A stretch of DNA of 64,000 bases from Kroppenstedtia eburnea (GTDB lineage: Bacteria; Bacillota; Bacilli; Thermoactinomycetales; DSM-45169): NCBI RefSeq assembly GCF_013282215.1, contig NZ_CP048103.1:1798001-1862000 (forward strand), written 5' to 3'. Each line of letters begins with the position of its first letter. Within the stretch, counting starts at the first letter, position 1. The translations under genes were made by a program, and so were the position numbers. Shown here in pieces: positions 4,381 to 61,395 of the stretch. Under the pieces are notes generated by a model, which did not search any database, was not told where the DNA came from, and saw nothing but the letters and a program-made list of their open reading frames with translations.

Positions 4381-4482
4381 AAACGTTGATTTAGTGCATT
4401 CTTGTCCTTCCGTTGTTCTGACGAGCCAAAGTCACTCCATGTGAAACCCACCCTCCCTCTGTTGTTCTCACAACGCGTCTCA
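4378..4482 (+). repeat. Degenerate MITE-like repeat, copy 3 (internally deleted)
   Basis: About 100 bases resembling the elements at 32021 and 40719. The left end is TAGAAACGTTGATTTAGTGC, the core contains GTTGTTCTGACGAGCC and CACTCCATGTGAAACCCA, and the right end is CTCACAACGCGTCT. The hairpin section and part of the left arm are missing. The element begins at the TAG stop of the polymerase gene. Confidence 0.65.
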
Positions 4483-20451: not shown

Positions 20452-21537
20452 CTATACCCATTCGCCCAACCGGTCGAGGGCATCATCCTTTTCCGAGTCG
20501 ATCACATGGGTGTAGATCTGGGTGGTCTGGATACTGGAGTGGCCCAGGATCTCCTGCACCACCCTCAGATTCTCCCCGTTGGAAAGGAGCAGGGTGGCCA
20601 AGGTGTGGCGCAATTTGTGAGGGGAGATGTTGGCGGCTTTGGGAGGAAGGTTGGCCTCCCGGACATATTTTTGCAATGCTTCCGAAACTCCTTTGCGGCT
20701 CATGCGGGTGCGATTTTTATTGAGGAAGAGAGCCTGTTGATGCTCAGGAGGAACTCCTTCTTCGGGCCGCAATTCCATATACCGGCGGAGTCCGGTATAC
20801 GCCGCCGGGTTCAGCTTCAGCATCCGTTCCTTGCCGCCCTTGCCCAGTACGATCACCCGGGCGGAGACCCCATCGGATTGGATATTGTTCAGATTGAGAC
20901 CCACCAATTCAGAGACCCGCATCCCGGTGTTGAGCAGGATCAGGATCATGGCCCGGTCCCGGGCTTCATACCAGGCGAAGCGACGCCTCTTCTGCTTTTG
21001 GTGGTAGGATCCGATGGCCTCGATCAGCCGCAGAGCTTCGTCACGGGTGAGGAAGACGGGGACTCTCTTCCGGTTGCGGGCTTTCAAAGTGGCATCCTCA
21101 TACTCCTGCATCGGATCCTTATCCAGCACATCGTTTTTCACCAGGTAACGAAACAGGGACCGTAAGGAAGAGCGCTTTCTTTCTTTTCCCGCCCGGGTAT
21201 TTTCCCGGAAGTGTTTTCTCGGCACCAGACTCTCCGTGACTTCCCCGGTGGAGGGATCCCGTTTTTTGACGCTCACCCATACGATGCGTTCATAGCCGTT
21301 TTCGATATGGCGAAAAAAGCGGCGCAACATCCGTGGGGTGACCGATTCCAGATCCACCTCTTTTTCCTTCAGAAAGTCAAAGAAGAGGGCGAAGTCATAG
21401 GCATAGTTGGCAATGGTCTGTCGGGAGCGCTCGGCACTGATCATCTCCAGGAAAAATTCCTGTACATCATCGGGAAACTGGATGATGATCCGGTTGATAT
21501 TCTCCGGCAGGCGCCGGGAGAAGGGATGGGAGGACAG
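20452..21537 (-). CDS. Tyrosine site-specific recombinase (XerC/XerS-like)
   Basis: A phage-integrase-family recombinase of about 361 residues. Catalytic residues are visible: Arg in NTGMRVSELVGL, HxLR in SPHKLRHTLATLL, His in LGHSSIQTTQIYTHV and the Tyr nucleophile in the same segment. The N-terminal SAM-like DNA-binding domain fills about residues 20-130. The first in-frame ATG (21444) would cut into that domain. The frame stays open to a CTG at 21537, behind GGGGTGA, so the true start is probably there or nearby. A perfect lox/dif-like palindrome lies 86 bases upstream. It could resolve chromosome dimers or drive a local element. Confidence 0.88.
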   Translation of the reverse strand: MSSHPFSRRLPENINRIIIQFPDDVQEFFLEMISAERSRQTIANYAYDFALFFDFLKEKEVDLESVTPRMLRRFFRHIENGYERIVWVSVKKRDPSTGEVTESLVPRKHFRENTRAGKERKRSSLRSLFRYLVKNDVLDKDPMQEYEDATLKARNRKRVPVFLTRDEALRLIEAIGSYHQKQKRRRFAWYEARDRAMILILLNTGMRVSELVGLNLNNIQSDGVSARVIVLGKGGKERMLKLNPAAYTGLRRYMELRPEEGVPPEHQQALFLNKNRTRMSRKGVSEALQKYVREANLPPKAANISPHKLRHTLATLLLSNGENLRVVQEILGHSSIQTTQIYTHVIDSEKDDALDRLGEWV

Positions 21538-21622: not shown

Positions 21623-21669
21623 CCACCCCTAACTTCCGATAGGGTACCATTATCGGAAGTTAGGGGTGG
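21623..21669. repeat. Lox/dif-like perfect inverted repeat upstream of a tyrosine recombinase gene
   Basis: Two exact 19-bp arms (CCACCCCTAACTTCCGATA and its complement) flank a nine-base spacer GGGTACCAT. The inner 13 bases resemble a loxP arm (ATAACTTCGTATA) and the ACTTCC of Bacillus dif. No T-run follows. It could be the recombination site or an operator for the recombinase at 20452-21537. Confidence 0.8.
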
Positions 21670-21976
21670 TGTATCGATTTGGATTGTTTTATAGGGATAG
21701 GGGGGAGAAAATACCGATTCCGGAGCTGCCCCTCCAGTAAACGGGGGGGATTTGGAGACCGCATGAGAACTCAAGTCATTTCCCGTTTATATTGACTTTA
21801 GGAACTGGCAGGTCATCGGAGGAGCATATTTTATTTTTTCCTGCTTGGATAGATCAAGGTCCCGAAATTAAGGCATGTGAGTTTGGATTTCGAATATTGA
21901 GGGATTTCACTCTCTTCATTTCCTGAATATGTCATACTGTTTCTCTGAAGTGGAAATTTACAGGCTATCAATTTCG

Positions 21977-22113: not shown

Positions 22114-25112
<2,999 letters not shown>

Positions 25113-25200
25113 AAAAGTGACTTGAATTCCCGGGTGAATCTCAAGTCACTTTTCCATTTCTTGATCCAGTGGCGGCAAAATCGGCTGATGCTCCCTCTAT
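25113..25200 (-). repeat. Tail-plus-hairpin repeat, copy B (end of the histidine kinase gene)
   Basis: Hairpin AAAAGTGACTTGA / TCAAGTCACTTTT (25113-25153) is followed by CCATTT and the block AAAATCGGCTGATGCTCCCT. The same block occurs near 53765-53853 and 60925-61040. On the minus strand it encodes the last residues of the kinase (EGASADF...NGKVT), and its stop codon lies in the hairpin. Confidence 0.7.
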
Positions 25201-26526
25201 CCCTTGAAAAGGTAACTCCACGATGAAAGTGGTACCCTGATCCGGGGCGCTTTCCACCTCGATGGTTCCGTGATGGGCCAGGACGAACTCTCTGGCAATC
25301 GCAAGTCCCAAGCCCATCCCGCCCCTGTTGCGCGCGCGGGATTCATCGGTTCGGTAAAACCGATTGAAGAGGTGGGGGAGATGCTCAGGTGGAATCCCGA
25401 CTCCCGTATCGGAAACCTGGATTTGCAAACCTTCCTTTTTCTTTGTGATATCAACCTTTACGGATCCACCCGGGGGTGTGTAGCGGAGAGCATTGGTAAG
25501 CAGGTTGAGAAAAACCTGTGTGATCCGGTGGGGGTCCACTGAAATCGGAGGGATTCCGGCGTCACAATGAAGTCTGATTTCCACTCCCTTACGATCTGCA
25601 TCGGGCTGGATCCGATCGATGATTCGTCTGAGCAATACAGGAAGATCCGTCGGTTTTTGATCCAATGGCAATTTTTTTGCCTCAGCAAGGGATAACTGAT
25701 GCAGGTCATCGACGAGACGATTCAGCCGAATCAATTCATCCTGCAAGGGCAACAAATTCTCCGGCCGGACGGGTTGGCCCCTTTGCTGGATCCATTCCAG
25801 TTTGCCCTGAAGGACCGTCAAGGGTGTCCTCAGTTCATGGGCCACATCCGCGACCAAATTTTTCCGGGCTTCCTCAGCCTGTTGCAACTGTTTGGACATC
25901 TGATTGAATGCTTTTGCGGTTTTTCCATATTCATCCCGACTCACTACGGGAGCTTGGATCCCCAGCTCGCCTTTGCCCAAGCGATCGATGGCCGGGATCA
26001 TCAATCGGAGCGGTGCCGTCAACCGTTTGGACAACCAGTAGGCAACCGGGAGAGAGATGAGGAGGAAGATGATTGCACCGGCGATCAACAGAACCGTCGT
26101 GGAATCCCTTATACCCATCCGCAATTTGGAGAGATGGGCGACTTCGGGATCGTAATAATACAGAAAAGCGACTGTTTTCCCTTCCTTCGGGATCCGACTC
26201 CGGATGCCAAACAGGGTGATGGTTTGGTCAGGGACGGACCCTGCGTGATAAAGTCGTTCTCCCTCCCGGGATAACAACAGCAAACCGGCATTCCGATCGA
26301 TGTTTCGGCCGATCTGCAGTTGTTGCACCCCCTCCCAGGAGCCTCCATTTTTCTCGTAATGGTCGACAAACAGACCGGATAAATATTCCACTTTCTCCTT
26401 TCTGCTGGCCTCCACCATCACATCGAGGATATCTTTGAGAACGATCTGTGTGACAAAGGCGAAAACCAGACACATGGCCACGATGAAAGCAGCGATGGTG
26501 ATAAACAGTTTGCGGGTGACACTCAT
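25141..26526 (-). CDS. Sensor histidine kinase of a two-component system
   Basis: A 461-residue membrane kinase. Transmembrane helices lie at about residues 8-28 and 145-168 and enclose an extracellular sensor domain. A HAMP segment follows, then the HisKA box with His in VAHELRTPLTV (about residue 235), then the ATPase boxes NLLTNALRYTPPGG (N), DTGVGIPPEH (G1) and MGLGLAIAREF (G2). Kinases of this type normally end at VELP; here an extra tail of about 20 residues comes from a repeated sequence. Its ATG overlaps the regulator's stop as ATGA. The signal is unknown. Confidence 0.92.
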   Translation of the reverse strand: MSVTRKLFITIAAFIVAMCLVFAFVTQIVLKDILDVMVEASRKEKVEYLSGLFVDHYEKNGGSWEGVQQLQIGRNIDRNAGLLLLSREGERLYHAGSVPDQTITLFGIRSRIPKEGKTVAFLYYYDPEVAHLSKLRMGIRDSTTVLLIAGAIIFLLISLPVAYWLSKRLTAPLRLMIPAIDRLGKGELGIQAPVVSRDEYGKTAKAFNQMSKQLQQAEEARKNLVADVAHELRTPLTVLQGKLEWIQQRGQPVRPENLLPLQDELIRLNRLVDDLHQLSLAEAKKLPLDQKPTDLPVLLRRIIDRIQPDADRKGVEIRLHCDAGIPPISVDPHRITQVFLNLLTNALRYTPPGGSVKVDITKKKEGLQIQVSDTGVGIPPEHLPHLFNRFYRTDESRARNRGGMGLGLAIAREFVLAHHGTIEVESAPDQGTTFIVELPFQGIEGASADFAATGSRNGKVT

Positions 26527-32020: not shown

Positions 32021-32209
32021 AAGAAGCATTGTGATTTACTGCGTTTGAAGGCAGTCGGGATTGGGTTTCACATGTCGTTTTCGTTGTTCTGACGATCCAA
32101 AATCACTCCATGCAAAACCCAACCCTCCGTGCATAGCGAGACCGGGAACGAAGTGACCTTGGCGAGACTTGTGCCCTATGGGTATGATGGCTTTTTCACA
32201 ACACTTCAA
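32021..32209 (+). mobile_element. MITE-like structured repeat, copy 1
   Basis: About 185 bases bounded by near-perfect terminal inverted repeats: GAAGCATTGTGA on the left and, as its complement, GAAGTGTTGTGA on the right. It is over 90% identical by eye to the element at 40719 (opposite orientation). It contains inverted segments TTGGGTTTCACATG / CATGCAAAACCCAA. The flanks are AA on both sides. The right end provides the TGA stop of gntK. Confidence 0.8.
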
Positions 32210-33728
32210 GGGATTGTTGCAATGCCGAAATGGATGGGTACTCTTCTTCCAACAACCTGGAGACCCTGATAAAGATCGGCATGATCTGTTCATAGACTGC
32301 TGTCGCCTGGGGATCCGGTCGATGGGAGTGAACCGCTCCCACCATGTCCTTGACAGCGGAGAGAGAATCGATTTCGCCCTTTTTGTACAATCCGAGGACC
32401 ACCGCCCCCAGACACGAGCTTTCAAAACTTTCCGGAATCACTAATTCTTTATTGAATACATCTGCCAGCATCTGTCTCCAGAACCCTGAACGGGCGAAAC
32501 CACCTGTTGCCTGGATCCGTGCGGGTTCTCCGGTCAGCTCGGTCAGAGCGAGCAGGACAGTGTACAGGTTCATCGTGATTCCTTCCAAGACCGCACGGAT
32601 CATATGCTCTTTTTTATGGTGCATCGCCAGCCCGAAAAAGGAGCCTCGTGCATGTGCATTCCACAGAGGGGCCCGTTCACCTGACATATAGGGGTGGAAG
32701 ATCAGACCTTCAGACCCTGCAGATACCTTGGAAGCCATTTCCGTCAACAGATCATAAGGATCCTTTCCGAGCCGCTTGGCTGTTTCCGTCTCGGCCGATG
32801 CCAATTCATCCCGCACCCAACGGAAGATCATGCCACCGTTATTTACCGGCCCGCCGATCACCCAGTGTTGATCGGTTAACGCATAACAGAAAATTCTTCC
32901 TTTCGGATCGGTAACCGGCCGATCCGTGACCGTCCGGATGGCGCCACTGGTCCCGATCGTCACAGCCACCACACCGGGGTCGATGGCGTTCACCCCCAGG
33001 TTGGAGAGAACTCCATCGCTGGCTCCGATCACAAAAGGAGTATCCGTGGGAAGTCCCATCTCCTCAGCATACTTGGGCGTCAGACCTTTGAAGGTGGCGG
33101 TGGTTGCAACCGGTTGGGAGAGTTGCCCCTTGGACACACCTGCGAGGCGGAGCGCTCCCTCATCCCAATCCAATCTCTTCAGATGGAACAAACCCGTGGC
33201 AGAAGCGATGGAATAATCGACTACATACTCCCCGAATAAGCGGTGAAATACATACTCTTTGATCGAGATGAACTTTGCCGCCTTGCTGAACAAAGCGGGA
33301 TGTTCATTTTTCAGCCAGACCAGCTTGGCCAGCGGGGACATGGGGTGAATGGGGGTGCCTGTTCGCAGATAAAGATCATGCCCCCGCCATTCATTCTTGA
33401 TTTGAGCGGCCCACCGGGCACTTCGTTGATCCGCCCACGTGATCGACGGAGTCAGCGGGTCTCCTTCCGCATCCACCAGGATCAAACTGTGCATCGCCGA
33501 ACTGAAGGAGACAAAATCAACTTCAGTTACTCCGCTTTCGGTCAAACAGCCTTTGATTGCGTGAATCACAGCCTGAAAAATTTCATCGGGATCTTGTTCA
33601 GCTGTGGCAGGCGTCGGGGTGTGAAGCGGATATTCAATGGCAACCCGCTTGATCAACTCCCCTTTTTTGGAGAAGAGGACCGCTTTTGTACTGGTTGTTC
33701 CTATATCGATGCCCATCATATAGTTCAT
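32196..33728 (-). CDS. gntK: Gluconokinase (FGGY family)
   Basis: Phosphorylates gluconate to 6-phosphogluconate with ATP. The 510-residue FGGY kinase starts YMMGIDIGTTSTKAVLF (phosphate-1 motif). The second domain contains VTIGTSGAIR, and the family signature region GGFARSGFWRQMLADVF lies near residue 430. The length is normal. The final codons GAA GTG TTG TGA belong to the terminal repeat of a MITE-like element, so the native C-terminus may have been slightly changed. It is the last gene of gnd-gntP-gntK. Confidence 0.93.
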   Translation of the reverse strand: MNYMMGIDIGTTSTKAVLFSKKGELIKRVAIEYPLHTPTPATAEQDPDEIFQAVIHAIKGCLTESGVTEVDFVSFSSAMHSLILVDAEGDPLTPSITWADQRSARWAAQIKNEWRGHDLYLRTGTPIHPMSPLAKLVWLKNEHPALFSKAAKFISIKEYVFHRLFGEYVVDYSIASATGLFHLKRLDWDEGALRLAGVSKGQLSQPVATTATFKGLTPKYAEEMGLPTDTPFVIGASDGVLSNLGVNAIDPGVVAVTIGTSGAIRTVTDRPVTDPKGRIFCYALTDQHWVIGGPVNNGGMIFRWVRDELASAETETAKRLGKDPYDLLTEMASKVSAGSEGLIFHPYMSGERAPLWNAHARGSFFGLAMHHKKEHMIRAVLEGITMNLYTVLLALTELTGEPARIQATGGFARSGFWRQMLADVFNKELVIPESFESSCLGAVVLGLYKKGEIDSLSAVKDMVGAVHSHRPDPQATAVYEQIMPIFIRVSRLLEEEYPSISALQQSLEVL

Positions 33729-40718: not shown

Positions 40719-40913
40719 TCTAGAAGCGTTGTGAAAAAGCCGTCATACCCATAGGGCACAAGTCTCGCCAGGGGGCTTTCGCCCCTGGTCTCGCTATGCA
40801 CGGAGGGTTGGGTTTCGCATGGAGTGATTTTGGATCGTCAGAACAACGAAAACGACATGTGAAACCCAATCCCGACCGCCTTTAAAGGCAGTAAATCACA
40901 ATGCTTCTAGATC
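40719..40913 (-). mobile_element. MITE-like structured repeat, copy 2
   Basis: 195 bases with perfect ends TCTAGAAGCRTTGTGA in inverted orientation (one ambiguous position). If TA is the duplicated target, the element is TA-GAAGC...GCTTC-TA, as for Tc1/mariner and IS630-type insertions. The interior holds the strong hairpin CCAGGGGGCTTTCGCCCCTGG-like stem near 40773-40793. There is no coding capacity. Confidence 0.85.
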
Positions 40914-53363: not shown

Positions 53364-53749
53364 TCTGTTTCCTCCCGGTTACAGACATGACCGGGCCGAT
53401 CCCTGTCCTCCTCGAAAATGCATGGCAAAGGGTGACAACCGACTTTCCAAATGAACTAATCTGACTGAAATCATATGCATCTCCTCCTGAAAAAAGCTGT
53501 TTTCGGCCATGCCTGCTTGTGTGATCGGAATGACAGGTGATTTTATTATAGATCAGATCGGTTTTTGATTTAATCTGTTTGTGATGCAAACTGGTTTGGG
53601 ATTTCGGGGTATGGTTTATGGACGGTTGCTGAATTGAATCTGATGCCGCGAGTGCGCCGGACACTTTACCCTCTCTCGAATAGAATGCGCCAAACGCAAG
53701 GCATCATCGTAATTTTCACGTATGACCTTCATATCAATTTGGCCACGGA
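53364..53749. other. Intergenic region before the transposon
   Basis: No convincing gene. The segment 53634-53822 has an open frame that ends in the repeated peptide tail but lacks any recognised domain or ribosome site, so it reads as a gene remnant. Confidence 0.5.
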
Positions 53750-53853
53750 GAAGATTCTCCAGTTTGGGGGAGAGGGAGCATCGGCCGATTTTGGGGCCAT
53801 TACCCCATTAAATGGGAAATGACTTGAGATCCACTTGGATCTCAAGTCATTTC
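53750..53853 (+). repeat. Tail-plus-hairpin repeat, copy A
   Basis: The plus strand encodes ILQFGGEGASADFGAITP-LNGK followed by a stop. The perfect hairpin AAATGACTTGAGATCC / GGATCTCAAGTCATTT lies at about 53818-53853. It resembles the ends at 25113-25200 and 60925-61040. The hairpin also lies directly after the stop of the recombinase gene at 53858 and can terminate it. Confidence 0.7.
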
Positions 53854-53857
53854 GTGT

Positions 53858-54562
53858 TTATACAGGGAACTCAGGGATGACACGCTCGTATTCATCCTGA
53901 GCATCGGTAATGGTCAATTTAGAATATACCTCAAGGGATTTACGGCTTGCATGTCCAGAATAAGGCTGGATGAGTGCATCGTCAATGCCTTGTTTCTTGA
54001 GCCATGTTAGCAGAAAGTGACGCAACTTATGAGGTGAAATGGATTGGGTCATGCCAGCCTGATCGGAATACTTCTTGAGGATTTTCCGAATGCCGCGGTC
54101 GGTATATTTTTTCTTCCAGGACGATTCAAATAGATAAACGGCACCCTTTTTCTCCGTGCTATCGGCATGCATGGCCAACAGTTCCTTGAAGGCGGTTGGA
54201 AAGGGCACGATCCGATCCTTCTTCCCTTTACCCTCGTTCACTCGGATCTGGCAGCGCTGAAAATCAATGTCGCTCAGCTTGATGTTAATGAGTTCGCTTA
54301 CGCGGACACCCGTATACAGCAGGGTCTTTATGATCATCATGTCCTGGAAGTTCTTTGCCTTCCAGACGGCTTCATAATAGCGCTTAATCTCGTCTTCCGT
54401 GGGCACATAAGGCAATTTCTTATTTGCCCTCGGCACATCAATTTCCAACTCGGCACGCAGGTGCCGGAAAACGGCTTTCAAGTAATCATAATCCGGCCGT
54501 TCTTCGCGAAGGTATTTGGCCAGCTCCCGGGCCTTCTTTTTTGGCGGAGTTCGGTGTTTAAT
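53858..54562 (-). CDS. Transposon-borne tyrosine recombinase (TnpI-like)
   Basis: A 234-residue phage-integrase-family protein. Arg is in [13 protein letters not shown], HxLR in [13 protein letters not shown], His in [13 protein letters not shown], with the Tyr nucleophile there too. It follows tnpA directly: AGGAGG overlaps the tnpA stop, and the only codon at proper distance is ATT (54562). The first TTG in frame (54481) has no ribosome site and would remove 27 residues of a conserved-looking basic N-terminus ([15 protein letters not shown]). It probably resolves cointegrates of the Tn3-family element, as TnpI does in Tn4430. Confidence 0.85.
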
Positions 54563-54574
54563 GGCGATCGCCTC

Positions 54575-57544
54575 CTATATCGGTAGTCGCTTATCCAAAT
54601 CAACATTAAATTTGCCATACCGCGTGATATGGTTGTAAATCAGTGGACTGAGTGCGCGTAAATCTTCAGTTGCCAACTTTTTCAGCCATCCTTGCTCCTT
54701 GATGACCTTTTGAATCTTAATGGTGTTGATATAGACCATGCAGTTTTGAAGCAGGTTAAGGCTCAAAACGGCGATCTCCTGCTCATCCACCTGGTTCTTT
54801 TGGATTTCTCCGTTCCGGCCAAAGAAGATGAAGCTATTGGCCGAGTTCCAGTTCTCAACCACATTGAGGCCCTCGTGAATCTCGCGCCGGATTTCCTCGT
54901 GCTGTAGGTATTCACACAGGAAGATCGTCTTGATCACACGCCCTAGCTCACTCAATGCTTTATAAACGGGATGAGTCCGGTTTTTGCTGAATCGCTTGAG
55001 AATCGCTTCGGTCTCAGCGGTGTTGAATCGCAAGGCCGCAGCGTATTTCACCATTTGGTCGTATTGCTGACGGATCAGATCCCAGTTGATCGGATTCTTG
55101 GCCAGTACCGGTTGCAGGTTCGGATACGCATCTGTCATGCCGTGATCGGGCTTATACAGCTTTTGTGAGCCGATATTTTTGAATCGTGGCATCAACTTAA
55201 AGCCAAGCAGGTGGCAAAAGGCAAAGCCGACTTCGCTTTGGCCATGCGTGTCTACATAGTTCCGATCGACTTCCTTTTCGGTGGCATGCTGGAGCAGCCC
55301 TTTAATCATGGCAGCCACTTCCGAAGACGTGCAGGTCTTTAAATGCGAGTGAATACAAGCAGACTTGTTTTCGACGTGCCAATAAATCATGACACCAGGC
55401 CCGCGGTAACGGGGATGCCATTCGGTCATCAGGTTTTGATCCCAGGAGCCGAATTTCTTGGAATCCGATGCGCAGGATGTAGTGGCTTCCCCCCACACTT
55501 CGGCCAGCCGTTCCTTCAAAATGGCATTCACAACTTGGATATTGGCCGCCTTCAGGTTTTCGGGATGGATAAACTTTCGCTTGATGTAGAGCAGATTTTC
55601 ATAGGTTATATCGGTGTTACCGGTGGCCATTCGCTTTAATCCCATGTTAGTGCCCAATCCATAAAGACACAGAAGCAAACGCTTTTGTATTTCTGAGCGA
55701 TCCAACCGTTCATGAGCGGCCAAGGACTGGAAAGCGTTTGTAAAGTCAATACGGAGGTCAGCTTCCTTGAAGACATCAATTAATTCAATCATCCACCACC
55801 GCTTGGCGATTTCCCTTTTTAACTGAGCCAAGCGCTCTGGTTCCGGTTGTGGATCTAATGGCGTAACCGAAATCCATCCACCCTTGTGATTGGTGATTCT
55901 TACTTTGGGGTTTTGTGGGATAGTTTGATTCAGTTGGTCCAATGCACGATGTAATGACTGCTTGAGTTCGTTGATGACGGAATCTGCATCCAGCCGCAGA
56001 CCAAGGGATTCATAATACTCTTCACGTCGTTCCTCAAAGTCACCCGGCAAATCTTCGTCCGGATTGCGGTAGCGATTGGCACCCACAACCCAAATCTCCT
56101 TGCACTTTAGCTTATCCCGCAGGGTGTAGAGAACGGAAATTTCGTAGTTCATGCGGTTGACGCGTAAATCGCCGTTCTTGTCTGTCTCCACAACCACTTT
56201 CTTGAATTTGGGCGGGATCACATCGTCGATCGGCACGTCATCGGCCACAGCAAAATACTTTTGCCTGGTTCCAATGTGCTTTTTGATCAAGTCCAGCGCT
56301 TCGATAATGGGCTGATACTTGGAGTTGTTTGAACGGAATTTAAGGGTGTTCAGAAGCTCCCCGATCGCGGTGCGGTATGTATTGCTGTAGGAGCTGCGCA
56401 TTTTGTAATAAACCTTTTCGCGGTACACCTCTTTGTTATGGGTCAATTCCCTTAACAAATCACGCAATGTCTCTTCTTCGACCACAGAGAACACAGCGTC
56501 TTCAATCACGTTGTTCCGATTTTCCAACAACGTTTCCAGCAGGGAAACCAAGATACTGTTCTTCCCGCGGACCTTCTTGATCTCCTGCAATATTTCACGG
56601 TCTACCCTACGCTGGGCCTGACCGTTAATGTTTAAAATAATGGTGATGAGCATTTCAACTAAGCTGTCCGTGATCTCCTGATGCCGGGACCAGAAGAACG
56701 TAGACAGTAGCGTATAACGTACCTCTGGAGGATGGCGCCGAATCTCAACCAATTTCTCTGAGACCACGCGCAGTCGGTACTTTCTCAAGATTTTTGGAGG
56801 AACATTCTTAAACAGATCGTTCGGTAACTCCAGCATGCGCAATTCCTTGAGTTTTTTGATTTCGTCCTCCAAGTTCTTTCTGTTGGCGCGGCCGGGACCC
56901 ATGTTGATTTTTCGGAAAGTCATCCGTTCTGGTTCCTCTGATCCTTGCTCCTCTGTCACCTCATCCTCGGCATCGGCCCAGTCGTCGATCATCGCGTCCA
57001 TTCGAGAGATCGAGGTGGAGGAAAGGCTTTGAAGCGTTTGAGCAAAAAATCTCTGTTCATGATTATGTAGAGCCGATCGGATCAGCGTCTCCACCGTATT
57101 GTCCACGGGCGGTTCGATTTTCCGCTGCCGGAGTTCAGCATAAACACGTTCTTTCAACACAGCAATGTCGTGATTGCAGCTTAATACTTTGTCCGTCAGC
57201 CAATGGGAAATTGCTTGGAGATCATCTGCTGTATGTTCACGAAAACCAAAGAATTTCCGGATTTCTGCACGATGCCGTTTAATCGTTCTACCGGTCCAAT
57301 CATATTGATCAAAGCGATCAGTGCTTACTCGGAGATGCTTGGCCAAGAATTCAATGACTGGGAGAGGAACATCATCAGCGCAATCAGGAAACCGGGCCTC
57401 ATGCTGAAAATACTTAAACAAAACAGCAAATGCCAACCGTGTCTCGAATTTCTTACCTTCAAACAATTGCCTTTCCGGTTGCAATAAACTAAAGTGTTCA
57501 ATAAGTTCTTCCTTTGTCCATTGTTGTTTCAACTCATGTGTCAA
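54575..57544 (-). CDS. tnpA: Tn3-family transposase TnpA
   Basis: A 989-residue transposase: the usual length of 950-1010 is kept and no frameshift is seen. An N-terminal DUF4158-type DNA-binding region (about 1-170) is followed by the DDE domain. Catalytic residues are probably Asp in [13 protein letters not shown], Asp in [15 protein letters not shown] and Glu in [19 protein letters not shown]. The first codon is uncertain: TTG at 57544 lies right behind AAAGGA. The 38-bp terminal repeats typical of the family were not found by eye. The gene seems functional. Confidence 0.93.
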
Positions 57545-57550
57545 TCCTTT

Positions 57551-57682
57551 CTAAAGTTCCTAGAATAGCTGGAGTCGGCACTTTTCGTCGGTCTGAGTAT
57601 AACGGGGATGGGTTGATAAAACAAGAAAAAGAACAAAAATACCCAAAGTTCCATTACCAAAACAAAATTAGGAACTTTGGGT
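57551..57682. other. Candidate recombination/resolution site upstream of tnpA
   Basis: CTAAAGTTCCTAG (57551-57563) and the inverted pair ACCCAAAGTTCC (57641-57652) / GGAACTTTGGGT (57671-57682) share the AAAGTTCC motif. Tyrosine-recombinase resolution sites of Tn3-like elements consist of such inverted cores plus direct accessory motifs. A simple hairpin is the alternative. Confidence 0.4.
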
Positions 57683-58067
57683 TTGTTGAAAGGAACAATC
57701 AATATGACACCTGAACCGACTTGGACCGATTGATAACCTTCCTTGTGAAAGATTGGTATCCGAATACTCCCGGATCTTCGCCAAGTGTTCACGCCGAGTG
57801 ATGTCCCAACCGCGGGTGTCCTCTATAACAGCCGGTGAAATCCCCAGTTACGGCCAATATAAGCTAGGATGGGTAAATGGATTTCTTCCCGGGGAAAAAA
57901 CGGCCGACCCGGGAATCGAGAATATCCCAACTGTACGGCAAAATCTAAGCGATTGGCGGTCCCTCTGTGACGATTCACGATTTCGATGGAGAGAGCGTAT
58001 AAAATCGAGTGATTTCCCGGTCCCTATTTCCGTCGGAACTTCACTTGATGAAGAAGGGAGCGATTCA
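57683..58067. other. Intergenic stretch between transposon and AT-rich genes
   Basis: About 385 bases. An open frame runs through it into the gene at 58068 but has no domain, and its composition changes sharply at about 58060. No feature recognised. Confidence 0.4.
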
Positions 58068-58382
58068 ATGTTTATTTTATTACTTACTTGTGTTTTCGTC
58101 AGTTGTTTAATAGTTTATATATGGACATATCGATATAATAACAATTTAATGAAAGATTGGTTAAAACGTTTGAGTTTATTTGTCTTTTTTACCCCTTTAA
58201 TATTAATAATGATTATTTTTTTCATCAAACAGAACTATCAATCATATAATTGGCTAATTAGGCAAGATTGTTGGTTTTGTACTGGAAGCGGTCCAGGATT
58301 GTTATCTGTTTTTCTTAAACTATCATTTATGAGTTTTTTAGGATTAGTTTCATATTGGATAGTAGAAAAAAATACAAAGTGA
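58068..58382 (+). CDS. AT-rich three-helix membrane protein, unknown
   Basis: A 104-residue protein: MFILLLTCVFVSCLIVYIW opens helix 1, a second helix follows around residues 36-53, and a third around 80-98. A conserved-looking WFCTGSG lies between helices 2 and 3. AAGGGAG precedes ATG 58068. The AT content is far above the window average, which marks it as a recent arrival. No family recognised. Confidence 0.6.
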   Translation: MFILLLTCVFVSCLIVYIWTYRYNNNLMKDWLKRLSLFVFFTPLILIMIIFFIKQNYQSYNWLIRQDCWFCTGSGPGLLSVFLKLSFMSFLGLVSYWIVEKNTK

Positions 58383-58477
58383 TCTAAGCTACCTTGGCGA
58401 TGGGTTTCTGTTCGGAACATCCGTATCCATCCTTTGCCATTCGTTTTCCTTCTTTTCTTTCATTGATTTCAACATAA

Positions 58478-58514
58478 AAAGGCTGCTGACCTGCATACTT
58501 TGTCAGCAGCCTTT
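58478..58514 (-). terminator. Terminator of the secreted-protein operon
   Basis: AAAGGCTGCTGAC / GTCAGCAGCCTTT with a short loop, just after the stop at 58538. Confidence 0.85.
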
Positions 58515-58537
58515 GCTACTATATTAGGAGCCGTTTT

Positions 58538-59314
58538 TTATTTTGGTGCACAAGTAATACCTTCACATACTTCGTTATTGTGCTGCGGTGGTGTTAAAGG
58601 ATAATCGTATGATGGATATGACCATTTAACTGATCCTGGTGCACTCCCTGTCCATGATGGTACAACCTTAGCCCCTCCTTTATCTGGATATCCATCTTCA
58701 AATCGACACCAAGGGTCTGCATATTCACCACTACAAATAATAGGCACTCCTTCCCAATCCCAGGTATCATGGAAGTGAGTCCGAGAAACGGTAACTTTAA
58801 AGTCATCCTTCTCTGCAGTATACGGTTCCTTTAAGTAAGAAGTGGCATAATAATAGGTAGAGTGTTGAGCTAGAAACCAGTAACCTGAACCTAGTCCAAT
58901 AGTAGGTTCATCATCGTTATCATCAAATGATGTATCTATATAGCCATAAGGCATATCTGTATACCAAAAATTACTGTCTTGATCTTCTGAATATGCTCCC
59001 TGTCCCCAAACTACATCGTCATATCCGTAGAAATTTAAATCTATCTCCATTCCACTTGGATCAAGACCTTCAAATGCATTTTCTGGCTCATACGCTTCTA
59101 ATCCTTGTTTCTCTTCCCAAACAAAATTATGCTCAATATAACGAGCAGGATCGTTGGTGTATCCTGGTAATTGATAGTCGATCCATGCACCTGTCATCCC
59201 ATAGGTAGGTGCTATTTTATCTGCAGCAAAGTTGGTTACACCATCATGAGCAAGAACACTTGTAGAACAACTAAATATAACAATTACTAAGAGCAATATT
59301 GTCTTTTTGACCAT
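58538..59314 (-). CDS. Secreted protein of unknown function
   Basis: A 258-residue protein with a classical signal peptide (KKTILLLVIVIFSCSTSVLA, cleavage after ALA-type site near residue 22). The mature part is acidic and aromatic, rich in Tyr, Trp, Asp and Gly (YDDVVWGQGAY, GYIDTSFDDNDDEP), with four Cys near the C-terminus that may pair. I do not recognise the family. Its ATG overlaps the stop of the gene before it (TAATG), so both are made together. It is more AT-rich than the chromosome around it. Confidence 0.7.
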   Translation of the reverse strand: MVKKTILLLVIVIFSCSTSVLAHDGVTNFAADKIAPTYGMTGAWIDYQLPGYTNDPARYIEHNFVWEEKQGLEAYEPENAFEGLDPSGMEIDLNFYGYDDVVWGQGAYSEDQDSNFWYTDMPYGYIDTSFDDNDDEPTIGLGSGYWFLAQHSTYYYATSYLKEPYTAEKDDFKVTVSRTHFHDTWDWEGVPIICSGEYADPWCRFEDGYPDKGGAKVVPSWTGSAPGSVKWSYPSYDYPLTPPQHNNEVCEGITCAPK

Positions 59315-60009
59315 TACTTCACAGCTCCTTCCAACCAGTTTTCAGGAATACTTTTATAAAGCGCTGTACTTTCATCATCTTGTTTAGTTGATTTTTTTAG
59401 GGCATGAATCTGTTTTTTATCAAGCAAATTATAAAGGGTTCCAGCTTTTCCTTTAACTTTTATCCCATAAACAATGCGAGCATCATTATTTGAAAGTTCT
59501 CTTAGTTTTGTTTGAAGGGATTGTCGTTTGGCGATAGCACTGTTTCTTATATCCGTAGTTATATCATCTTTTTTTTCCTCTTTTTTTAATATGTCTATTT
59601 GCCTCTTTATAACTGTCTTCAGAGAATGGTTAAACCTTTTTTCCGCCTCAATCATTGATTCATTCGGACTGATAGTATATCCACCGACAGCAGTGTGGTT
59701 TCCAATATTGATCATATAGCTCCAACCTTTAACCTCTAAATTGTGATCTTTAGTTAAATCCCTAATCTCTTTAACTGTTCTTTTATTATTCAGAGTGATT
59801 TGAGCATATATTTCTTTGTTGTTGTCAACTTCACTAATCCATTTTTCACCGTTGCTTTTTGCTTCATCTAGCCCTTTAGCAAGAAACATTTCAACCTTTT
59901 CCGCCTGATCTCGCTTTGTGATTGCCTCTGTTTGATCAACATCAGCAAGTGCAATAGTTGTACCAATGAGGGTTACTCCCACGACAATGGATAAAATCTT
60001 TCTTTTCAA
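59314..60009 (-). CDS. Exported lysine-rich protein of unknown function
   Basis: A 231-residue protein with an N-terminal signal sequence (KRKILSIVVGVTLIGTTIALA). The mature part is helical and strongly charged, with EKVEMFLAKGLDEAKSN and a long Lys/Glu region (ILKKEEKKDD) that may be coiled coil. The start is TTG 60009 behind AGGAGGAGG; a longer frame has no ribosome site. It is the first gene of a two-gene operon with the secreted protein at 58538. The AT-rich composition suggests transfer. No family recognised. Confidence 0.7.
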   Translation of the reverse strand: MKRKILSIVVGVTLIGTTIALADVDQTEAITKRDQAEKVEMFLAKGLDEAKSNGEKWISEVDNNKEIYAQITLNNKRTVKEIRDLTKDHNLEVKGWSYMINIGNHTAVGGYTISPNESMIEAEKRFNHSLKTVIKRQIDILKKEEKKDDITTDIRNSAIAKRQSLQTKLRELSNNDARIVYGIKVKGKAGTLYNLLDKKQIHALKKSTKQDDESTALYKSIPENWLEGAVK

Positions 60010-60099
60010 AATGGTCCTCCTCCTTTTAAATACTCCCACTAAACCATTCTACACAATCGAGTTAAATCCTTGTAACGAAGCTATTTTTTTCAATAAAAG

Positions 60100-60524
60100 A
60101 TTGACGCTAATTATTGTCCTCTACACCAAAGTTGAGAAAAAAGTGCCCCTTCGGACAACCTTGATCTTCTCTCGTTCATTAAAATGCTCCGTCGCCGCTT
60201 CCATCGTTCGGAGCGGATCTACTTGGTGTTGGACAATTTTTCACCCCATAAAACACCGGCAAAGTGCGTCAGTGGGTCAAGAAACATAATATAGAGTTGA
60301 TTTACACTCCCACCTATTCCTCTTGGCTCAACCGGATCGAATGCCATTTTGGTCCTTTGCGTCGATTTGTTCTGAATGGAAGTTATTATACTTCTCATGA
60401 TGATCTCTTTAACCAAATTCGGGCTTACATCCGATGGCGCAACAAAAATAAACGTCATGAACGATCTTACGAGAACAAAAGAAGACCCGGTGCTTCTTGC
60501 TTTGGGATCGATGGTCCGTCTTAA
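60100..60524 (+). pseudogene. IS630-family transposase remnant, C-terminal half
   Basis: LDLLSFIKMLRRRFHRSERI, YLVLDNFSPHKT and, after a one-base frame change near 60255, VRQWVKKHNIELIYTPTYSS and WLNRIECHFGPLRRF belong to the DDE domain of IS630-type transposases (Asp in VLDNFSPH, Glu in NRIEC). It has no start codon or N-terminal part on this strand. Confidence 0.75.
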
Positions 60525-60534
60525 GGTCATAGTG

Positions 60535-60815
60535 ACGAACTCCATAAGGGCGGGATAGGTGGCGTGAAGTGAACGGGCTCTTTCACTGGATACCATCCTT
60601 GACCTCGATGAGGTTGAAGATTAAGGGGTCCAAATTCGTCCAGGCAGATCACCCGACCGTCTTGCGGCGGGTGGTTGTAAAGCTGATCAATTCGTTTTTT
60701 AACCTTATACTCTGGATCGTTAGATTCTTTCCATGTCTTCGTATGTTGGTAGGTAATTTCCGCTTCGTTTAAGATTCCCCGAAGTGTTTCGATGCTGGAG
60801 GAAACAGCCTAACCT
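60535..60815 (-). pseudogene. IS630-family transposase remnant, N-terminal half
   Basis: On the minus strand SSIETLRGILNEAEITYQHT, KTWKESNDPEYKVKKRIDQL and VICLDEFGPLNLQPHRGQGW (first catalytic Asp) are recognisable. The frame then breaks up near 60590 and the rest is missing or inverted; see the plus-strand half at 60100. Confidence 0.7.
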
Positions 60816-60924
60816 AAGCTACAAGGAACAATCCGATGCTTTAAACGTTGATCTGCTAGAAATACAAAGGGCTTGGGGAATATCATTCATTTGATAAAGA
60901 GCAATTTTTGAAAAAGATTATAAG

Positions 60925-61040
60925 AAGACAAAAATGACTTGTGGTTGCTTGTGCAACTCAGGTTATTTTCCATTTGCTGGAGTGATGGCCCCGAAATTAG
61001 CCGATGCTCCCTCTACCCCAAACTGAAGATCCCCAACTCC
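60925..61040 (-). repeat. Tail-plus-hairpin repeat, copy C
   Basis: On the minus strand LQFGVEGASANFGAITPANG-K and a stop, followed by a degenerate hairpin near 60930-60965. It is clearly related to copies A and B. Confidence 0.65.
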
Positions 61041-61276: not shown

Positions 61277-61395
61277 GGTGAGATCTCCTTTGATAAGGTT
61301 GCCTGTAGTATGTCTTCAATCAAGGATGTTAAAACAGAATCAGAGAGGATTTGTCGTAAATCCCCTCGCTACCATCCATTGCCGATTCCTAAAGC

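What the first reader, a model, noticed from the sequence alone, without database searches (positions are those of the whole stretch)
25113..25200. Repeated C-terminal tail plus hairpin, one copy grafted onto a histidine kinase
Three sites (25113-25200, 53750-53853, 60925-61040) encode nearly the same ending EGASA(D/N)F-A--(P)-NGK-stop, followed by a hairpin with (A)AGTGACTTGA-type arms. In the kinase the tail extends past the normal VELP end. DNA blocks such as CGATGCTCCCTCT are conserved too. It may be the end of an old mobile element or a mobile terminator that adds a peptide tail to genes.
Basis: seen in the sequence. Interest (0 to 1): 0.6.

Follow-up and report, generated by a model that had tools for sequence, protein, structure and literature searches.

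The report
Tn3-type transposon ends read as protein
The repeated protein tail is the end sequence of a jumping gene of the Tn3 family; in one place an old insertion sits at the end of a sensor gene, which now reads through into it, so the tail looks like an accident rather than a conserved peptide.

Summary
In detail: three sites share 54-79 nt plus a hairpin, and the 22-nt core has just three exact matches in the 3.56-Mb genome, all in this window. It is not a protein tail but the terminal inverted repeat (GGGG..GAGGGAGCATC...) of a Tn3-family transposon. Sites 2 and 3 are the two ends of one 7254-bp element (53766-61019) with a 989-aa Tn3 transposase, a tyrosine recombinase and a resolution-like site. 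Four related elements show exact 5-bp target duplications; for one, in a sister species, the empty site is present in this window. Site 1 is one end of an older, transposase-less 3.5-kb element carrying a rifamycin phosphotransferase gene, inserted at the kinase's 3' end. The kinase's terminator now lies beyond the other, degenerate end, and the sister species has the same insertion read in another frame. Substitutions show no codon-position bias, so DNA, not peptide, is conserved. The subterminal hairpin changes sequence with compensatory changes and is most likely a bidirectional terminator (about 0.65). An ordinary kind of object, though the element is not named in the papers I searched.

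The parts
53816..53853 (.). subterminal palindrome, 17-bp stem; likely bidirectional terminator next to the recombinase stop codon
53858..54481 (-). tyrosine recombinase (TnpI-like), 207 aa from the listed start; the open frame is 238 aa
   Evidence: (PF00589, E 2.3e-32)
54575..57544 (-). Tn3-family transposase TnpA, 989 aa, open frame; the only PF01526 match in the genome
   Evidence: Tn4430 TnpA 7qd4 E 1.2e-71
57553..57681 (-). resolution (irs/res)-like site upstream of tnpA: inverted pair CCCAAAGTTCC...GGAACTTTGGG (57642-57681) and a further GGAACTTT (57553-57560)
   Evidence: a GTTCC...GGAAC inverted pair is visible by eye in all 5 upstream regions printed there (the window's included)
57753..60596 (.). 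cargo region: ORFs without a Pfam family above cut-off, then debris that I take for an IS630-type transposase (label recalled; the one piece scanned, 60219-60596, had no family hit)
60969..61019 (-). right terminal inverted repeat of the 7254-bp element
25113..25153 (.). subterminal palindrome at site 1
25141..26526 (-). sensor histidine kinase, 461 aa; the HATPase_c match ends at residue 441; residues 441-461 are read from the presumed target duplication and the TIR
22114..24729 (-). rifamycin-inactivating phosphotransferase (Rph), 871 aa, inside the older element
   Evidence: NF041857, 1523.5 bits, cut-off 999
21694..21790 (+). degenerate other end of the older element
   Evidence: 13.5 bits (hairpin arm) and 9.9 bits (TIR part); best of 123 control stretches of the window 5.3
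21623..21669 (.). displaced terminator hairpin of the kinase gene, just outside the far end of the older element
   Evidence: z -7.8

Best explanation
The repeated 'tail' is the terminal inverted repeat (TIR, about 50 bp, starting GGGG) of a Tn3-family replicative transposon, read by accident as protein; the hairpin is a subterminal palindrome just inside the TIR. Sites 2 and 3 are the two ends of one apparently complete 7254-bp transposon with order TIR - hairpin - tyrosine recombinase - TnpA - resolution-like site - cargo - hairpin - TIR. By the established mechanism of the family, TnpA would pair the two TIRs and insert a copy with a 5-bp target duplication, and the recombinase would resolve the cointegrate at the site upstream of tnpA. 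Site 1 is the end of an older, transposase-less element that carried a rifamycin phosphotransferase gene into the 3' end of a histidine kinase gene before two Kroppenstedtia species split. The kinase lost its own stop (most likely TAA to CAA in the target duplication) and now runs on into the TIR until a stop inside it. The hairpin most likely works as a bidirectional transcription terminator for the tnpA-recombinase operon and against read-in. Shown: TIR identity, element boundaries, target duplications and an empty site for relatives, the frame difference, paired changes in the hairpin. Inferred: transposition activity, the order of events at the kinase, the terminator role.
For: TIRs face each other around a Tn3 TnpA and a tyrosine recombinase. 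Exact 5-bp target duplications at four related elements: TTTGC (13,046 bp, G004, same family), TCGTA (sister species, ends on two contigs; empty site in this window at 61354-61358), TTTTA (3,892 bp, G294), TAGAA (14,413 bp, G031, whose TIR is of the classical type). Element pieces of the two species are 99.0-99.4% identical at different insertion sites, while of the six flanking blocks over 600 nt five are 83.7-88.5% and one 97.0%. Tn3 ends carry a highly conserved GGGGT box (PMC9579193, passage). Kinase orthologues: the sister species reads the same TIR in another frame (AVGEHQPVLPPIDREMEK-stop); a second genus ends VEFPL-stop followed by a hairpin whose close copy in the window lies beyond the far end of the 3.5-kb element; a third genus has an unrelated end. 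No codon-position bias. Hairpin: 7 of 12 pairs show changes on both sides over 14 ends.
Against: The 7254-bp element itself has no direct target duplication (AGTTT / AAACT, inverted), and its left flank resembles debris of another Tn3 transposase (29 aa), so that locus may have been rearranged. The older element's target duplication is imperfect (TTCAA/TTTAA in the sister, TTCAA/TATAA here) and its far end is degenerate. The terminator role is anatomical only: the T-tracts are short, the scan finds 9 terminator-like sites where shuffles give 7.6, several far ends have lost the hairpin, and relatives such as the Paenibacillus ones have no subterminal hairpin of this kind, only an imperfect one inside the TIR. 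The covariation count uses ends chosen because they fold, each with its own best pairing, and 21 of the 23 double-change cells come from one genome (my recount).
Confidence: 0.93

Rival explanations
1. The subterminal palindrome is a binding or recombination site for the tyrosine recombinase (or TnpA), like the extra TnpI-binding DR2 copy reported close to each end of Tn5401, and not a terminator.
For: Tn5401 precedent (PMC7157771, passage). The arm AAATGACTTGAG or a close variant recurs at both ends of several elements, and the arm-loop-arm unit is about 36-37 bp at several ends by eye.
Against: In one genome (G277) both arms of the recombinase-side palindrome are rewritten while the far end keeps a GACTTGA arm. 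Several far ends have lost it. A different inverted pair (GTTCC...GGAAC) lies upstream of tnpA in 5 of 5 upstream regions printed, including P. bovis and Priestia, whose recombinase-side ends lack the hairpin, and looks like the resolution site.
Confidence: 0.22
2. The tail is a selected, mobile C-terminal module that transposon ends graft onto host proteins.
For: All three window copies read as nearly the same peptide to a stop, and one is fused to a kinase.
Against: The sister-species kinase uses another frame; no codon-position bias; related TIRs carry a stop within this frame (Laceyella, recombinase side) or change its residues; the other two window sites are not fused to a recognised gene.
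Confidence: 0.03
3. The site 1 copy is not one end of a 3.5-kb element but a stray TIR; the rph gene arrived separately.
For: The far end at 21.7 kb is degenerate and target duplications are imperfect.
Against: The far end scores 13.5 and 9.9 bits against at most 5.3 in 123 control stretches; the kinase's terminator hairpin lies immediately outside it; the sister species has the same arrangement with a decayed rph between, though only one arm of that terminator is left there.
Confidence: 0.12

Closest known systems
Tn3-family transposons of the TnpI type (Tn4430, Tn5401, TnBth4)
   Same: Large DDE TnpA (PF01526; the two solved sequences matched are both Tn4430 transposase, E 1.2e-71), GGGG-starting TIRs, tyrosine recombinase, an inverted-repeat resolution site (PMC7157771 and PMC9579193, passages).
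   Different: In Tn4430 tnpI and tnpA are colinear with the irs upstream of tnpI (PMC7157771, passage); here the recombinase follows tnpA, the irs-like site precedes tnpA, and a palindrome sits inside the TIR.
TIMEs and mosaic non-autonomous Tn3 elements (PMC4133298, abstract)
   Same: The rph element here and a 2,318-bp element in G004 have Tn3-type ends and no Tn3 transposase between them.
   Different: The ends belong to another TIR type; movement in trans is inferred, not shown.
Tn3 element of Paenibacillus bovis plasmid NZ_CP021170.1
   Same: tnpA then tyrosine recombinase, TnpA 56% and recombinase 81% identical, same irs-like motif.
   Different: Shorter, classical TIR directly after the recombinase stop codon, no subterminal hairpin there.
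Laceyella sacchari plasmid element (NZ_CP103867.1)
   Same: Named relative with like ends: TIR plus hairpin at both ends, recombinase 95% identical.
   Different: Only 1,681 bp, only about the first 161 residues of TnpA left, no direct target duplication.
MITEs overlapping genes, e.g. QMITE1 of Coxiella burnetii (PMC5896051, abstract)
   Same: Short mobile-element DNA that overlaps annotated reading frames.
   Different: Other element family; here the overlap is one Tn3-type end at the 3' end of a kinase gene.

Membership tests
Tn3-family transposon | TnpA of about 1000 aa with Tn3 DDE domain | tested here: met
   989 aa, PF01526 E 1.4e-139, NF033527 881.7 bits over cut-off 500
Tn3-family transposon | terminal inverted repeats starting GGGG at both ends | tested here: met
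   53766(+) and 61019(-); 79-nt inverted match at 82%, which also takes in 10 nt outside and the outer hairpin arm
Tn3-family transposon | 5-bp target duplication | tested here: inconclusive
   exact at four related elements (L015, L067, L071, sister species), 4 of 5 at two (L016, L046); not direct at the window's own copy, nor at L044, L045, L064, L072
Tn3-family transposon | resolvase gene and resolution site | tested here: inconclusive
   tyrosine recombinase present; inverted pair upstream of tnpA in 5 of 5 regions printed; activity untested
Tn3-family transposon | replicative transposition via cointegrate | not testable with these tools
   needs a transposition assay
Tn4430-type (TnpI) layout | tnpI with the irs upstream of it, colinear with tnpA | tested here: not met
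   recombinase lies downstream of tnpA; irs-like site upstream of tnpA
Intrinsic terminator (hairpin) | stem-loop conserved as structure | tested here: met
   7 of 12 pairs with both-side changes over 14 ends chosen because they fold; 3 decayed ends printed but not counted; 8 of 22 ends have no hairpin better than 18 or more of 200 shuffles
Intrinsic terminator (hairpin) | U-tract after a stable stem | tested here: inconclusive
   A-tract and T-tract are part of the stem; one search lists 53816-53853 on + only, and the total of sites is not above shuffles (9 vs 7.6)
Conserved peptide tail | coding constraint on the tail frame | tested here: not met
   variable columns 6/15, 7/15, 5/14 (8 ends) and 8/15, 10/15, 7/14 (14 ends) by codon position; other frame in the sister species

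The most novel reading that the evidence does not exclude
A lineage of Tn3-family transposons in the family of Kroppenstedtia and Laceyella and some relatives has evolved a soft-landing end: a TIR that tends to hold stops in the inward reading frames (all three frames in 8 of 14 ends) followed by a bidirectional terminator, so that insertion at gene ends truncates cleanly and insulates element and host transcription.
Probability: 0.2. Interest if true: 0.5.

Novelty: new member of a known kind. Interest (0 to 1): 0.28.

Why it matters
It turns a puzzling 'repeated protein tail' into a well-understood object and shows how a transposon end can become part of a sensor kinase without sign of selection on the peptide. 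It also documents a Tn3-family lineage with the recombinase behind tnpA and terminator-like hairpins inside the ends, and an old non-autonomous Tn3-type element that carries a rifamycin phosphotransferase gene.

Tried and rejected
Rejected: tail as a normal C-terminus of a kinase or transposase family (orthologues of two other genera end without it). Rejected: the peptide as the conserved unit. Rejected as chance: four of the 14 pattern matches of the family search (L004, L005, L009, L012), each with 3 mismatches; the profile search gives nothing for L004 and L012 and E 0.36 and 0.077 for L005 and L009. L013 matches only the first 28 nt (E 0.0097) and was kept because it faces L014 with 4 of 5 bases of a target duplication.

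Rows dropped before counts: recombinase-side ends at G104, G242 and G251:C67 were not put into the hairpin test, because no TIR was recognised after the recombinase there. In one search three decayed ends were printed but not counted. In one search, 49 of the 80 loci were listed and 2 of those were too short, so 47 were looked at. In one search, 150 control stretches were drawn and 123 used, those near the known ends being left out.

Tried without gain: the Tn5401/TnpI binding papers are not held. Paper searches (listings only) showed nothing that names this element; passages of PMC8407400 concern other elements. Rfam gave no match in the window at gathering scores. The terminator scans found no clear excess over shuffles. 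The inverted 10-nt similarity of the two outer flanks (AAACTG(G/A)AGA) stays unexplained.

Full report
What was checked. The three stretches are at the stated places. They share 54-79 nt at 72-82%, and the core block has exactly three perfect matches in the 3.56-Mb genome, all in this window, plus one 3-mismatch match that is not an end; the reversed control pattern has none. One detail is off: the kinase frame ends NGKVT-stop.

What the block is. Reading the copies outside-in, each starts GGGG followed by (T/G)(A/G)GAGGGAGCATC (GGGATAGAGGGAGCATC at site 1). Copies in related genomes start at the same base while the DNA before that base differs. This is how a transposon end behaves. The window copies at 53766(+) and 61019(-) face each other around a 989-aa Tn3-family transposase frame and a tyrosine recombinase. 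It is the only PF01526 match in the genome. The solved sequences it matches are both Tn4430 transposase. A highly conserved GGGGT box at transposon ends is described in the Tn4430 structure paper (PMC9579193, passage).

Mobility. A 13,046-bp relative in G004 is flanked by TTTGC/TTTGC, a 3,892-bp one in G294 by TTTTA/TTTTA, and a 14,413-bp one in G031, with TIRs of the classical type, by TAGAA/TAGAA. In the sister species G003 the two ends lie on two contigs whose flanks both carry TCGTA; the undisturbed TCGTA site is in this window at 61354-61358, about 335 bp from the right end here. That these two contigs hold one element is inferred. The element pieces of the two species are 99.0-99.4% identical; of the six aligned flanking blocks over 600 nt, five are 83.7-88.5% and one 97.0%; the insertion sites differ. 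This points to recent movement or transfer. Four of five bases agree at L016 and L046. The window's own copy (AGTTT/AAACT), Laceyella L044, P. bovis L045, L064 and L072 show no direct duplication. The window copy's left flank resembles debris of a different Tn3 transposase (29 aa at 55%, E 1e-5), so that locus may have been rearranged.

Host. G003's contig C26 has 20,708 bases and a recombinase identical to the window's; the record NZ_BMEX01000026.1 of Kroppenstedtia guangzhouensis has the same length and a 100% identical recombinase. The window is therefore inferred to come from a Kroppenstedtia species.

The kinase. In the sister species the orthologous kinase (88% identical) ends VELPFQGAVGEHQPVLPPIDREMEK-stop: the same TIR and hairpin DNA in another frame. 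In G004 (72%) it ends VEFPL-stop, followed directly by a hairpin TAACTTCCGAT...ATCGGAAGTTA. In G001 (60%) the end is unrelated. A close copy of that hairpin is in the window at 21623-21669, immediately beyond a degenerate TIR-like end at 21.7 kb (13.5 and 9.9 bits against at most 5.3 in 123 control stretches). Between the two ends lies an open rifamycin phosphotransferase frame; in the sister species the same place holds a decayed rph, and one arm of the kinase terminator beyond it. So a 3.5-kb transposase-less element inserted at the 3' end of the kinase gene in a common ancestor and separated the gene from its terminator. Target duplication: TTCAA on the kinase side in both species, TTTAA (sister) and TATAA (here) on the far side. 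My preferred reading is an ancestral TTTAA containing the TAA stop (VELPF-stop, the same length as the G004 protein), later changed to CAA. A stop a few codons downstream (VELPFQNN-stop) needs as many changes; the G004 length favours the first. Either way the tail comes from running past the gene's own end into the TIR. Counting the bases printed, 8 of 14 ends hold stops in all three inward frames within the first 68 nt; site 1 itself holds them in two of three.

Protein or DNA? In the tail frame, variable columns among 8 close ends fall 6/15, 7/15 and 5/14 on codon positions 1, 2 and 3; among 14 ends, 8/15, 10/15 and 7/14. There is no third-position excess. One Laceyella end has a stop within this frame, and G294 and others change its residues. 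The DNA is conserved, as expected for a transposase binding site.

The hairpin. Of 22 ends tested, all 10 recombinase-side ends of the close group (9 with 12/12, one with 11/12), both copies of the kinase site, and the far ends of Laceyella, G277 and Priestia reach 11-12 of 12 pairs with 0 of 200 shuffles as good. C61 (22 of 200 shuffles as good), G003_R (18), G004_R (118), G004s_R (84), G294_1 (135), G007 (91) and Priestia's recombinase-side end (111) do not. That makes 15 with and 7 without. Over 14 folding ends (three decayed ones printed but not counted), 7 of 12 pairs have changes on both sides, 23 cells in all, and 6 of 168 cells are unpaired; by my recount 21 of the 23 cells come from genome G277, so they are few events, and each end was paired by its own best hairpin, which favours pairing. 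In G277 the arms read AAAACAGACCGA, AAAACATACCGA and AAAAATAGACCG, each with its matching partner, while a far end there keeps the GACTTGA arm. A sequence-specific binding site should not drift like this on one side only; a terminator can. A GTTCC...GGAAC inverted pair lies upstream of tnpA in all 5 upstream regions printed (by eye), including P. bovis and Priestia, whose recombinase-side ends lack the hairpin, and is the better candidate for the recombinase's own site. Against this stands the Tn5401 precedent of an extra TnpI-binding copy near each end (PMC7157771, passage). I put the terminator role at about 0.65 and the protein-site role at about 0.22.

Distribution. The recombinase-after-tnpA layout is seen in the window element, in P. 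bovis and Priestia plasmids and in genomes such as G104 and G031. A scan of named genomes found 95 recombinase loci and kept the best 80: by their titles roughly half Firmicutes, the rest mostly Proteobacteria MAGs with a few cyanobacteria and others. I looked at the stretch after the recombinase in 47 of these 80. Paenibacillus-type loci typically have a classical TIR directly after the stop; the script reports imperfect 9-11 of 11 pairings there, many with G-T pairs, but these lie inside the TIR itself and not next to it. So the subterminal hairpin looks like a feature of one lineage. In one search, 11 of 299 genomes of the class had a recombinase match at E <= 1e-30. In the 190-member library of PMC7157771 (passage) only Tn5401, TnBth4 and Tn4430 encode a TnpI resolvase.

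Verdict. Real, and explained: Tn3-family terminal inverted repeats with subterminal hairpins. The peptide tail is most likely accidental. New element, known kind.

Noticed in passing
window 32022-32210 (+), 40720-40908 (-), part at 4408-4453: A repeat of about 189 nt with 63 BLAST matches in the genome (82-100% identity; 40 of 398 first-look candidates scored, so a lower bound), sometimes in tandem; no Rfam match in the window. Possibly an undescribed high-copy repeat.
   Followed up: partly
window 53660-53765 (-): Left flank of the transposon looks like a fragment of a different Tn3 transposase (29 aa, 55%, E 1e-5).
   Followed up: partly
window 53756-53765 and 61020-61029: Both outer flanks of the element read outward AAACTG(G/A)AGA, i.e. 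inverted rather than a direct target duplication.
   Followed up: no
L018 11187-15483 against window 53766-58746: The sister-species copy of the element lacks about 680 bp of tnpA that the window copy has.
   Followed up: no
window 20452-21444 (-): A XerC/XerD-like tyrosine recombinase gene lies just outside the far end of the rph element.
   Followed up: no
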